13,600 nucleotides of DNA from Chitinophagaceae bacterium (GTDB lineage Bacteria; Bacteroidota; Bacteroidia; Chitinophagales; Chitinophagaceae), in NCBI GenBank assembly GCA_947378615.1, contig CANCKV010000023.1:1-13600 (forward strand), written 5' to 3'. Below, one piece after another: positions 1,957-13,600 of the stretch. The notes beneath the pieces are model-generated. The model did not search any database. It had not been told where the DNA came from and worked only from the letters and a program-made list of their open reading frames with translations. The translations under genes and the position numbers were made by a program. How positions within the stretch are numbered: position 1 is the first letter of the stretch; every line of letters starts with the position of its first letter.

Positions 1957-2667
1957 TTATCCGAACGCTGACAATTTGCTATACTTTGAATCAGGATAAT
2001 ACATATACACACAAGACCCCTCCTTTATATAATTGATAATTGGCTGACAAAGTTCCTCTGGAACTGCTGGACACCCCTGACTCCTGCCTAACCGTCCACA
2101 ATTTTTAATGAAAGATGCACTCACATACGATGCTCCATGCATAACTATGCCCCTACCTTCTGCCCCATCATTAATGCCTTTTTCCAACCCTTTCAACCGC
2201 ATTGATAGTCCATGATTGCCAATATAGGTTTCTGCGGTTGAATAAAAGCCAAGACTTGATTTAAAGGAATTCAGTTTGTTGGCGAAAGATACGGCATACT
2301 CATTTCCCGAATTTCTTCCATGTGCCACGTAAGTATTAAAAACAACGATTGCCTTTTCTACATCTATTATATATAGTCGTTTGGCATTTGAAGATTGCGA
2401 AAAATCAATGATTGTCAATAAGCCCGACCGTAGCAATTGCTTGTTCTTGTTAAGCAAAGTCCATCCCGAAATTGCTTTATCAAATACAATTCTTTTTAAG
2501 CCAATATTTGAAAGAAGTAATTCATCGTACAAGTTCCGATAATCAGAAGTCTGATTTATCTGAAAAGAAGTAGAATGCTTATTAAAATCTGAATTGCCCT
2601 GTGTACACAATAACACAAACAATAGCATCAAGCTGATGCGTAATAAACGATAAAATTGTTTTGGCAT
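1957..2667 (-). CDS. L,D-transpeptidase catalytic-domain protein, YkuD_2 type, exported
   Basis: The protein has 236 residues. It begins with a hydrophobic signal sequence (about residues 8-24, LLRISLMLLFVLLCTQG) after a basic start, so it should act in the periplasm. The catalytic region carries H177 (IVMHGASYVS) and the nucleophile motif SQGC with C199, the order seen in the murein L,D-transpeptidase catalytic-domain family (PF13645-like) rather than classical YkuD SHGCIR. Upstream, STAETYIGNHGLSMRLKGLE matches the substrate-cleft region of that family. Known relatives act on peptidoglycan stem peptides through a cysteine thioester; whether this one makes cross-links, trims or attaches proteins cannot be told. 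The ATG at 2667 gives the full signal peptide. It is separate from the larger L,D-transpeptidase at 11198-12838 and is not a paralogue of the same subfamily. Confidence 0.88.
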   Translation of the reverse strand: MPKQFYRLLRISLMLLFVLLCTQGNSDFNKHSTSFQINQTSDYRNLYDELLLSNIGLKRIVFDKAISGWTLLNKNKQLLRSGLLTIIDFSQSSNAKRLYIIDVEKAIVVFNTYVAHGRNSGNEYAVSFANKLNSFKSSLGFYSTAETYIGNHGLSMRLKGLEKGINDGAEGRGIVMHGASYVSASFIKNCGRLGRSQGCPAVPEELCQPIINYIKEGSCVYMYYPDSKYSKLSAFG

Positions 2668-5923: not shown

Positions 5924-6334
5924 TTAAAACAAAAAAGGAAAGGAATAAAAACTCCAATAGTCATAAACCTTATCCCAATGAATATTAGTATCGGGCCAAT
6001 GATCCATATCGAATCCCGGAGCTAGTTCAAGAGTCTCTTTTTTTTGATTAAAAACAAATAATTGCTTTTTTTCGTCCACGTTGAGAAGGCCAAAAGGAAT
6101 CGCATAATATTTAGTTGATATTCCCAAAAAGCCACCAAATTCAATTATGTAATAATCAATTTTACCAGTAATTATATCAATCATGATATCCTTAATGGTT
6201 CCAATATGTTCTTCTTCTAAATTGTGGACATGGTCGCCAATAATTGAAGTGGCGGTCAAGTACTTTAAAGGTCGATTTATTGCTGGACCTTCATGATTTA
6301 TGCCCGAAAGATTGTCTTCTGTTAACCTGCTCAT
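5924..6334 (-). CDS. PRC-barrel domain protein
   Basis: The 136 residues include a PRC-barrel at about 24-107: LKYLTATSIIGDHVHNLEEE, then IGTIKDIMIDIITGKIDYYI and IEFGGFLGISTKYYAIPFGL, and LNVDEKKQLFVFNQKKETLE. This is the photoreaction-centre H-subunit/RimM-like beta-barrel, with the hallmark G-x-I-x-D-(I/L)-(M/L)-I-D and AIPFGLL strands. There is no signal peptide or membrane span. Stand-alone PRC-barrel proteins of this size are common beside BON, Usp and other stress genes; the function is not established, and protein-protein interaction is the usual suggestion. The C-terminal tail beyond residue 108 (DHWPDTNIHW, YDYWSFYSFPFLF) is unusually rich in aromatics. The gene lies 40 nt upstream of the BON gene and shares its leader motif. 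Confidence 0.9.
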   Translation of the reverse strand: MSRLTEDNLSGINHEGPAINRPLKYLTATSIIGDHVHNLEEEHIGTIKDIMIDIITGKIDYYIIEFGGFLGISTKYYAIPFGLLNVDEKKQLFVFNQKKETLELAPGFDMDHWPDTNIHWDKVYDYWSFYSFPFLF

Positions 6335-11197: not shown

Positions 11198-12838
11198 TTA
11201 ATTTTGAGATACATCAAAGAGCTTTTCTGCCATTTTTTTGTCGTGACCATAAATATCATCTCTAAAATTCATAATGCCCTCTGCATCCACCCAAGCGGTA
11301 AAGTATTTGATAATTACTTGAACTAGTGGTTTCGCATTTACCCATACTTCATTTGATTGATTCATTAAAGTGCCAATTGAATCTGCCGTATAAAGGGGCT
11401 GTCGTCTCAACAAAAATTTTGCTAGTCCTGCTGGATTTCCAATCCGGATGCATCCATGACTAAATGACCTTTTTGAATTTAAAAATGCATCTTTATTTGG
11501 GGTATCATGAAGATAAATGTTGAATTTATTGGGGAAAAGGAATTTTACTTTGCCAAGTGCATTTTTCTGTCCAGGCTTCTGCCTTATTTCAGGAATCAGT
11601 CCATCATATTTCACAACCTCCATATTGTGCTGATTCAGATAATTCCTATTTCTCATCATTGCGGGCATCACTTCCTTTTTTGTGATACTCAATGGCACAT
11701 TCCAATAGGGACTGAATACGATATAACGAATATTTCCAGAAAAAATGACTGTATTATGCGCTTCAGTTCCAACGATTACAGGCATTGAAAAACTGTATTT
11801 CCCAGAATCATATACGTAAAGTTTATATTCAGGAATATTTATCACAATTCTATCAAATCCTAACGTATCGAGAGGCAACCATCTTGCCCTTTCCATATTT
11901 ATTAGAATTTTTATTATCAAAGTTTTGGGAGATAGATTTAATTGTTTGAGAGTAGAAAATCCCACAATTCCCGTTTCAGGAAGTCCGAACCTAAATTGGA
12001 ACTTCTTAACAGCTATCAGCATTGAATCATTAAAAAGTGTTGATGTATCCTTTTCTTGATAATCACCAAGTAAAAAAAGTCGATTCTTGATGATTCGTAT
12101 TATTCTATTTTTTTCTCCTATCTTAAAGACCTTGTCAACTGTAATTGAGTCCCACTTGAAAAGTTTATTGAGTTGTTGGTATTTTGAAAGTTCTTTTTCC
12201 AATAACCTATATTGACGATTCAAAGGCTCCTGTATTTTATTTGGATATTCATTACCATCCACTAATGAGTCAAGAATCTTAGTGATGTTCATTTTTTTTC
12301 TAGGAATATACCACCCTAATTGAGTGATATTTAGTTCACTTCCTTGATACACTTTTGTAGCATATCTAAAGAACTGTCCAGTTATTGACAATTCAGCTTT
12401 TCTTATTAAACTATCCCTCAGTATTTTATTTGTGTCTATTTTATCACTGAGTCTATCATATAATTGCTTTAGTTCTGGATTATAAAGGGTACTATCATCG
12501 AGATTTGAAATTAAATCATTTTGAAGATTGTAAAAATTATGTGCTTGTTCTGTCAACCCATCTGCATCAAACCATGCAAACTCAAAGTTCCTTTGAGAAT
12601 AAAAATCAAAATATTCACTATGATATTTTTGAAAAGAATCTTCCTGTAAAATAAAATTTTCTAAGTAAATACTATCTAAAAAAAGATTATTAAAGGAACT
12701 TTTTGAATTGATGGAACTATCACGCAAACTATCTTTAGCTTTAATTGGGTTGCAAAAAATATTAAATAATGCAAACAAAAAAAGGGTCAATAAAACAATT
12801 GGTGTGGAAAAAATTACCTTTGAAATTTCTATTTTCAT
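11198..12838 (-). CDS. YcbB/LdtD-type L,D-transpeptidase, membrane-anchored
   Basis: The 546 residues match the large L,D-transpeptidases such as E. coli LdtD (YcbB). An N-terminal membrane anchor or signal lies at 10-29 (FSTPIVLLTLFLFALFNIFC). A helical scaffold follows at about 70-230 (FAWFDADGLTEQAHNFYNLQ). A peptidoglycan-binding-like segment lies at about 245-302 (FNDSMLIAVKKFQFRFGLPE, TGIVGFSTLKQLNLSP). The catalytic YkuD domain runs from about 330 to 500, with the NMERARWLP lead-in, IVINIPEYKLYVYDSGK, the capping subdomain around VPLSITKKEVMPAMM, H444 (IYLHDTPNK) and the nucleophile motif SHGCIRI at 460-466 (C463). LdtD makes 3-3 peptidoglycan cross-links and supports survival under envelope stress and beta-lactams. 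The domain faces the periplasm. There is a long gene-free region upstream; the small lipoprotein gene lies 70 nt downstream. Confidence 0.96.
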   Translation of the reverse strand: MKIEISKVIFSTPIVLLTLFLFALFNIFCNPIKAKDSLRDSSINSKSSFNNLFLDSIYLENFILQEDSFQKYHSEYFDFYSQRNFEFAWFDADGLTEQAHNFYNLQNDLISNLDDSTLYNPELKQLYDRLSDKIDTNKILRDSLIRKAELSITGQFFRYATKVYQGSELNITQLGWYIPRKKMNITKILDSLVDGNEYPNKIQEPLNRQYRLLEKELSKYQQLNKLFKWDSITVDKVFKIGEKNRIIRIIKNRLFLLGDYQEKDTSTLFNDSMLIAVKKFQFRFGLPETGIVGFSTLKQLNLSPKTLIIKILINMERARWLPLDTLGFDRIVINIPEYKLYVYDSGKYSFSMPVIVGTEAHNTVIFSGNIRYIVFSPYWNVPLSITKKEVMPAMMRNRNYLNQHNMEVVKYDGLIPEIRQKPGQKNALGKVKFLFPNKFNIYLHDTPNKDAFLNSKRSFSHGCIRIGNPAGLAKFLLRRQPLYTADSIGTLMNQSNEVWVNAKPLVQVIIKYFTAWVDAEGIMNFRDDIYGHDKKMAEKLFDVSQN

Positions 12839-13193
12839 TTTATACTATCTGATGATTTGCCTTTCGCTTAAATTAAGAAGGAACCAAATAGAATAAAGCA
12901 AAATTGAATGAAATGGCTACCTACCATATTATATAAGTTATGGAATTAGTATCAAGATTCTCATATTCAAACTGATTGTGTTAATATTCGTTAGGAAAGC
13001 AGTTAAAATAAATTGAGCAACTTTTATCTAAAGAAGATATGCATTTTAACTTAAAACTTATAACGTACAACTTCCTTACTAATTGAAAGTAACTACTTCA
13101 CTTTTACCCCTAAATTTTATTAAATGAACAAGATTTTCAACAAGTTACTTATCTTATAATACCTACAGACATACATTTTTAATAGGATGCCTG
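12839..13193. other. Gene-free AT-rich stretch upstream of the LdtD-type gene
   Basis: I see no gene in these 355 bp. Open frames on both strands are very short (for example MKWLPTILYKLWN on the plus strand). It should contain the promoter of the L,D-transpeptidase gene, but no clear Bacteroidota TTTG / TAnnTTTG pair stands out. No inverted repeat of note is present until the tandem array begins at 13194. Confidence 0.5.
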
Positions 13194-13403
13194 TTCGTTA
13201 AGCTTATTGCAGTCACATACGACCCTGTGTGGCAGTTCGATAAGCTTAATGAAGCTACACACAACCCTGTGTGGCAGTCCGTTAAGCTTATCGAACCCAC
13301 ATTCGACATCGAATGGCAATCCGATAAGCTTTCTGAACCTGCACACAACCCTGTATGGCAATTCATTAAGCTTATCGAACCCACACACTACCCTATGTGT
13401 CAC
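13194..13403. repeat. Five tandem 42-bp repeats with dyad symmetry every 21 bp
   Basis: Five directly abutting 42-bp units run 13194-13235, 13236-13277, 13278-13319, 13320-13361 and 13362-13403. All contain TAAGCTT at the same place. Each unit has two symmetric cores. The first is an imperfect version of TTCGATAAGCTTATCGAA (unit positions 1-18). The second is an ACACA...TGTGT-type hairpin (positions 23-38). Their centres lie at 9.5 and 30.5, exactly half a unit apart. Units 1, 3 and 5 resemble each other at position 5 (GTTAAGC or ATTAAGC), and units 2 and 4 share GATAAGC and CACACAACCCTGT, giving an A-B-A-B-A order. Units 2 and 4 differ at 7 of 42 positions. The TTCGA-AAGCT core resembles widespread TTCGACAAGCTC-type bacterial repeats, from memory. 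No spacers are present, so this is not CRISPR. Confidence 0.95.
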
Positions 13404-13431
13404 TCTGTAGGTTTTTTATGGCATCTAAACC

Positions 13432-13600
13432 TCAAGTTATTAATCGATTAAGAATTTTCAGGTAATAGCTTGCACAGATTTCGAAGAATTGAAATTTATA
13501 TTTAGTAAAGTTTTCTCCAATCCAATCAAAATACGGCGAAATTTCACCAATAGACAGGCTTTGCAACTCTAATAAATGCTTAAAAAGAAAAAAACTACAT
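13432..13600 (-). CDS. Possible C-terminal end of a gene entering from beyond the window
   Basis: A minus-strand frame is open from the window edge to a TGA at 13434-13432, encoding about 55 residues (FKHLLELQSLSIGEISPYFD, WIGENFTKYKFQFFEICAS, YYLKILNRLIT at the end). The residues look protein-like, with several aromatic and charged positions, but I recognise no family, and an AT-rich 169-nt frame can stay open by chance. If real, the gene ends about 30 bp before the 42-bp repeat array, making the array its immediate 3' flank. Confidence 0.35.
   Translation of the reverse strand, partial: CSFFLFKHLLELQSLSIGEISPYFDWIGENFTKYKFQFFEICASYYLKILNRLIT

What the first reader, a model, noticed from the sequence alone, without database searches (positions are those of the whole stretch)
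13194..13403. 42-bp tandem array with dyad axes every 21 bp and compensating changes in one unit
Five abutting 42-bp units each carry two palindromic cores centred exactly 21 bp apart, about two helical turns, so ten dyad axes could lie on one face of the DNA. In unit 2 the second core is CACACA...TGTGTG. In unit 3 it has become CATTCGA-CA-TCGAATG around the same centre: pairs 25:36, 26:35 and 28:33 changed on both sides together, and 29:32 became paired. Unit 1 keeps the pairing through G-U type wobbles. Keeping symmetry while changing sequence suggests that the symmetry or hairpin is selected rather than the letters. It could be a binding array for a dimeric protein, a chain of RNA or single-stranded DNA hairpins, or a decaying palindromic mobile repeat.
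Basis: partly seen in the sequence, partly recalled or inferred. Interest (0 to 1): 0.7.

Follow-up and report, generated by a model that had tools for sequence, protein, structure and literature searches.

The report
Modular palindromic repeat element in Chitinophagaceae
The 42-base repeats are the middle of a small, gene-free, probably once-mobile DNA element built of palindromes between two matching ends; relatives in three bacterial species keep mirror symmetry while changing its letters, which is intriguing but does not yet prove that the symmetry has a job.

Summary
It is the middle of a larger element, window 13161-13415: a leader and a tail ending in inverted repeats (ACCTACAGA/TCTGTAGGT) with 42-bp palindromic units between. 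I found five further copies in the same genus: one here (contig end), three in G008 (Chitinophagaceae bacterium JR-MC-I-240519-121) and one strongly diverged copy in G007. So 3 of 13 genus genomes have it, a lower bound. Sites are divergent, convergent and co-directional intergenic gaps. G007 and one G008 copy share an orthologous site; this genome lacks the element at rplU, where G008 has it. No convincing hit in 394 family genomes beyond these, nor in phage or plasmid records. It fits a non-autonomous MITE-like modular element of the BrickBuilt/BOX kind, with its own sequence. Selection on symmetry: second cores pair more than in shuffles, and G007 has other letters (TTTC/GAAA) on an axis exactly midway between first cores. 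But two of six arrays have degraded second cores, one after changing one arm only; independent events are few, and template switching between arms explains unit 3 without selection. New variant of a known kind; function unproven.

The parts
13161..13415 (.). whole element: leader, five palindromic units, tail
   Evidence: aligned end to end with G008:C18 (74% over 263 bp, E 6e-41); end profiles; GC 43.9% against 27.2% in the flanks
13161..13169 (+). left terminal inverted repeat ACCTACAGA
   Evidence: complementary to 13404-13412; AAAACCTACAG at the leader of the G008 C18, G008 C76 and G007 copies
13404..13412 (+). right terminal inverted repeat TCTGTAGGT, followed by T run to 13417
13170..13193 (+). 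leader, with GATGCCT motif shared by other copies
   Evidence: alignment A2, 4 leaders
13194..13235 (+). unit 1
13236..13277 (+). unit 2, second core CACACAACCCTGTGTG
13278..13319 (+). unit 3; second core CATTCGACATCGAATG at 13300-13315, a perfect dyad with different letters
13320..13361 (+). unit 4
13362..13403 (+). unit 5; its second half runs into the tail
11198..12838 (-). neighbouring gene: L,D-transpeptidase (YkuD, Scaffold, PG_binding_1), start 322 bp from the element
13432..13599 (-). partial ORF running off the contig, stop 16 bp from the element; no Pfam match, so not certainly a gene

Best explanation
It is one copy of a small non-autonomous, MITE-like modular element: inverted-repeat ends in a leader and a tail, with a minisatellite of 41-42-bp units between, each unit carrying an AAGCTT-centred dyad and a second, letter-variable dyad halfway to the next. 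Most likely mechanism (inferred): a transposase acting in trans on the ends moved it into intergenic gaps, probably long ago; unit number then changed by slippage or unequal exchange and units were homogenised within arrays; the dyads are kept or re-made partly because palindromes drive template-switch correction and partly, perhaps, because hairpin formation matters to the element or its host. Shown: architecture, ends, copies, different sites, presence/absence, unit number, within-array similarity. Inferred: transposition, its enzyme, template switching, any function.
For: Ends and architecture shared by independent copies. Six copies in 3 of 13 genus genomes. Sites: co-directional here, divergent rplU/methyltransferase at G008:C18, convergent at G008:C76. 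Empty site: the syntenic rplU gap of this genome has no element, and the G008 L,D-transpeptidase upstream region read has none. Unit number varies: one full unit (two first cores) in C76, five first cores here and in C18, at least five in C384 (contig end), five in G007. Units are more alike within arrays (0.811, 19 pairs) than between (0.692, 86 pairs; label permutation 0.0002). GC 43.9% against 27.2% in the flanks. No frame open in all copies (direct reading).
Against: No target-site duplication seen at the three copies with both ends readable; the empty-site boundary is blurred because the flanks have diverged. No transposase with matching ends was identified; Y1 transposase genes are in 12 of 13 genus genomes, but not in this one, and do not track the element. 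Copy number is low. It is not AT-rich. G007 and G008:C384 share one orthologous site, with alignable flank (34.2 against shuffle maximum 29.6) and gene proteins 59% identical: an old, retained insertion, which also suits a functional element. The window's own array is no more uniform (0.73) than its match to C18 (0.71).
Confidence: 0.65

Rival explanations
1. The dyads themselves are selected: the array is a multi-site binding platform for a dimeric protein or a chain of DNA/RNA hairpins, and letters drift while symmetry is kept.
For: Second-core pairing above shuffles with and without unit 3; four different letter sets on the same axis (CACACA/TGTGTG, CTT../..AAG, TTCGA/TCGAA, TTTC/GAAA); G007 second dyads exactly at the midpoint although its period is 41; a copy kept at an orthologous site in G007 and G008; strong folding of the window copy, z -11.3 and -9.9.
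Against: Second cores degraded in 2 of 6 arrays; first core without covariation; few independent events; varied gene context; period 41 as well as 42; weaker folds elsewhere: C18 z -4.3/-5.2, C76 -2.7/-4.0, G007 -1.8/-5.8. Letters varying so much argue against a sequence-specific protein on the second core.
Confidence: 0.2
2. Unit 3's mirror change is one template-switch (quasipalindrome) event, possibly copied from the neighbouring first core, and says nothing about selection. This can be true within the best explanation.
For: Unit 3 is the only perfect second core (7 of 7 WC) and its arms TTCGA/TCGAA are those of the first core; no other unit shares a word longer than 3 bases with a window first core, unit 3 shares ATCGAA. 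Template switching between arms is reported to homogenise inverted-repeat arms (PMC8604942, abstract; PMC7202029, start of abstract).
Against: 7% of random palindromes of this size share a 6-base word with a first core and 28% a 5-base word, so the copied-from-core-1 part is weakly supported. No intermediate or sister copy was found.
Confidence: 0.5
3. A transcribed structured RNA or a bidirectional terminator.
For: Closing stem with T run at both ends and strong folds on both strands of the window copy.
Against: No Rfam family reached its gathering score in the window; one copy lies between divergent genes, where a terminator is not expected; both strands fold; wobble pairs do not favour one strand (both g and c types). 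No RNA data here.
Confidence: 0.1
4. A repeat inside a protein-coding gene (14-residue repeats).
For: A 107-aa stop-to-stop frame covers the window array, 13128-13451.
Against: The same frame has TAA in L003 (read); no one of six frames is open in the C18, C384 and C76 copies; a protein search with the opposite-strand frame found nothing at E up to 1.
Confidence: 0.02

Closest known systems
BrickBuilt MITE of Porphyromonas gingivalis (PMC4596501; abstract and passages seen)
   Same: Bacteroidota; leader and tail with small inverted ends; tandem units without spacers between; intergenic; limited host range; no transposase inside.
   Different: 23-nt units against 41-42; different end sequence; 19 copies in one strain against one to three per genome here; the passages seen do not describe palindromic units.
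Pneumococcal BOX elements (PMC3049150; passages seen)
   Same: Modular: end modules A and C around a variable number of B modules; inverted ends; foldable; intergenic; reading frames on both strands in some.
   Different: Other phylum, other sequence, much higher copy number; no 21-bp dyad spacing described in the passages seen.
464/PgRS elements of P. gingivalis (mentioned in PMC4596501)
   Same: Short inverted-repeat element with 41-nt tandem repeats, a similar period.
   Different: Reported there as sharing ends with BrickBuilt, not with this element; sequence not compared here.
REP palindromes, GTAG/CGTC superfamilies (PMC3733652; passages seen)
   Same: Short palindromes in intergenic DNA with subfamilies that differ by complementary stem changes.
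   Different: No GTAG/CGTC-tagged single stems; here two alternating dyads within inverted ends; no link to a RAYT gene shown.

Membership tests
MITE (general) | terminal inverted repeats | tested here: met
   9 bp here, 11 bp in C18, about 11 with one mismatch in C76; the G007 tail is decayed
MITE (general) | no transposase gene inside, 50-1000 bp | tested here: met
   131-259 bp where both ends are seen; no frame open in all copies
MITE (general) | several copies at different sites | tested here: met
   six copies, five different sites
MITE (general) | target-site duplication | tested here: inconclusive
   none evident at the three two-ended copies; empty-site flanks diverged
MITE (general) | related IS with the same ends | not tested
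   searches for other carriers of the ends used end profiles only; no IS library at hand
MITE (general) | usually AT-rich | tested here: not met
   GC 43.9% against 32.2% in the window; a typical, not a strict, feature
BrickBuilt | leader, spacerless tandem units, tail with inverted ends | tested here: met
BrickBuilt | 23-nt unit and its end sequence (GAGACCTT...) | tested here: not met
   unit 42 or 41; ends AAAACCTACAG. Works like BrickBuilt, not a member
BOX | boxA/boxB/boxC sequences | not tested
   BOX sequences were not compared; only the architecture was,
REP/RAYT | palindromes beside a RAYT transposase gene | tested here: inconclusive
   no Y1_Tnp in this incomplete genome, present in 12 of 13 genus genomes without tracking the element; neighbourhood of those genes not read

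The most novel reading that the evidence does not exclude
A modular element whose second dyad is kept as a symmetry without a sequence: different species and subfamilies carry unrelated letters (CACACA/TGTGTG, CTT/AAG, TTCGA/TCGAA, TTTC/GAAA) on an axis exactly midway between fixed AAGCTT axes, even when the period shifts from 42 to 41, because a shape (a chain of cruciforms or hairpins, about two helical turns apart) is what is recognised or replicated.
Probability: 0.2. Interest if true: 0.75.

Novelty: new variant of a known kind. Interest (0 to 1): 0.42.

Why it matters
It extends minisatellite-bearing MITE-like elements, published as BrickBuilt in Porphyromonas, to an uncultured Chitinophagaceae genus, and gives a natural system for asking whether palindromes persist by selection for shape or by template-switch correction: one orthologous pair, two subfamilies and a rewritten unit are available for comparison.

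Tried and rejected
Coding repeat: rejected. Known RNA family: none in the window at gathering scores. Phage or plasmid origin: no match at E 1e-5; two viral-contig pattern hits lie in what reads as coding DNA without a period near 42, and an end pattern gave 0. Genome-contig pattern scan: 6 stretches, two being G008 itself; the other four (L039, L041, L042, L044) have no array of period near 42 (L039 has one short 21-bp duplicate at 6014-6054) and each matches only the first core; taken as chance. G330 (L036) and G141 (L150) hits look like coding DNA without an array. G010 (L029), G004 (L079) and G005 (L080) weak hits were read and look like coding DNA. The other weak hits were not read one by one: all 156 fetched loci were scanned for AAGCTT runs 36-48 bp apart, which besides known copies gave L062 and a two-site run at L033:418/462 inside a gene.

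Re-reading weak hits showed the G007 copy (E 0.096), so the count is now 3 of 13 and the case for kept symmetry rose a little. I also corrected the axis count (5, not 4, of 10 axes have 4-5 of 8 pairs).

Limits: profile searches scored 150 candidates per genome in the genus and 13 per genome in the family, so diverged copies are certainly under-counted.

Literature searches: palindromic repeat + GIY-YIG + intergenic (nothing relevant), TTCGACAAGCTCA (0 papers), BOX, quasipalindrome, Chitinophag + palindromic + interspersed repeat (0 papers), miniature inverted-repeat + Bacteroidetes, BrickBuilt (3 papers). That this element is not in print rests only on these.

Full report
OBSERVATION. The array is as described. 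Two dyads 21 bp apart exceed all 5000 column permutations. Symmetry is imperfect: WC counts over eight flanking pairs are 5,4,6,6,6,7,4,5,6,4.

ANATOMY. ACCTACAGA at 13161-13169 is complementary to TCTGTAGGT at 13404-13412, the latter followed by a T run. Both strands fold strongly: z -11.3 (+) and -9.9 (-), 0 of 200 shuffles each. The long inverted repeat 13227-13306/13309-13388 follows from alternating dyads and needs no separate explanation. The element is GC 43.9% in flanks of 27.2%.

RELATIVES. BLAST over 59 relatives hit this genome and G008. Reading the loci gave G008:C18 (L026, complete, five first cores), G008:C384 (L027, cut by the contig end), G008:C76 (L033, complete, two first cores) and a second copy here, C342 (L003, cut by the contig end, leader decayed). 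G008 is Chitinophagaceae bacterium JR-MC-I-240519-121 by contig identity. Profiles of unit, tail and leader over the 13 genus genomes gave strong hits only in these two genomes. A weak tail-profile hit in G007 (E 0.096) proved on reading to be a sixth copy: leader AAAACCTACAG, first cores CTCAATAAGCTTACCGAG and the like, spacings 42, 41, 41, 41, decayed tail. So 3 of 13 genus genomes carry it, as a lower bound. In 394 family genomes, BLAST and the tail profile added only two single hits in DNA that looks coding, G330 and G141.

SITES. Here: between a partial ORF and an L,D-transpeptidase, same direction. C18: between divergent rplU and a methyltransferase. C76: between convergent genes. C342: upstream of a gene for a repeat-rich protein. 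C384 and G007: upstream of homologous genes of unknown family, proteins 59% identical over 320 residues, with the flank between gene and element alignable (34.2 against a shuffle maximum of 29.6) and the leader on the far side in G007: one old shared insertion. In this genome the rplU gap has no element; the G008 region upstream of its L,D-transpeptidase has none. Sharing one site and differing at others fits an element that moved in the past and is now kept or lost.

SUBFAMILIES. Units here and in C18 are of a CACACA/TGTGTG type; those of C384, C342 and C76 are of a CTT/AAG type. This genome and G008 each have both. Within-array identity is 0.811 (19 pairs), between-array 0.692 (86 pairs), permutation 0.0002. 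The window array is itself diverse (0.73), about as far from C18 (0.71).

SYMMETRY TEST. Over 15 units in a gapless alignment, the first core keeps 87.4% standard pairs but not more than shuffles (488 of 500 as high): its letters are simply conserved. The second core keeps 79.0% against 64.4% (0 of 500) and a covariation score of 0.487 against 0.271 (0 of 500); without unit 3, 77.6% (0 of 500) and 0.449 (1 of 500). The number of pairs with two-sided change is not above shuffles (137 of 500; without unit 3, 499 of 500). Shuffles ignore relatedness, and the main two-sided change (27:40) follows the subfamilies. WC pairs of 7 in the second core: window 5,7,6,4; C342 5,5; C76 4; C384 1,3,3,3; C18 2,2,1,2. 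In C18 the left arm was replaced while the right arm stayed nearly as in the window. G007 was not in that alignment: three of its four midpoints carry TTTC..GAAA dyads exactly on the axis (15 of 24 WC against 6.8; 215 of 20000), the fourth, next to the leader, does not. Symmetry with new letters thus recurs, but is lost in two of six arrays.

MECHANISM. I favour a MITE-like modular element with unit turnover. Template switching between arms, reported to homogenise inverted repeats (PMC8604942 abstract), can remake symmetry without selection and fits unit 3, whose arms equal those of the first core; the evidence for that source is weak, since 7% of random palindromes share a 6-base word. Selection on shape remains open.

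COMPARISON. The architecture matches BrickBuilt of Porphyromonas (leader, spacerless tandem units, tail with inverted ends) and BOX of pneumococcus (end modules around a variable number of inner modules). Unit length and end sequence differ from BrickBuilt, so it works like it but is not a member. No transposase was tied to it; Y1 transposases do not track it.

VERDICT. Observation confirmed; interpretation partly supported; new variant of a known kind.

Noticed in passing
L027:359-1375 (-) and L062:1850-2860 (+): A conserved gene of about 336-338 aa, without Pfam match in the L027 copy, keeps the element upstream in both G008 and G007.
   Followed up: partly
L103:3210-3276: A different hairpin, ACAGGACTGAATG...CATTCAGTCCTGT followed by a T run, lies upstream of the G008 L,D-transpeptidase, where the window has its element further out.
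   Followed up: no
L033:1880-2110: Intergenic stretch with recurring motifs like aacgctaatattgaac / gacgcaacgttaagattgaa, which looks like another degenerate repeat family.
   Followed up: no
window first cores (TTCGATAAGCTTA): From memory they resemble TTCGACAAGCTCA-type palindromes scattered in many bacterial genomes; one paper search for that string found nothing and the likeness was not tested.
   Followed up: no
window 1957-2667 and 11198-12838: Two unrelated-looking L,D-transpeptidase genes (YkuD_2 and YkuD) within 11 kb.
   Followed up: no
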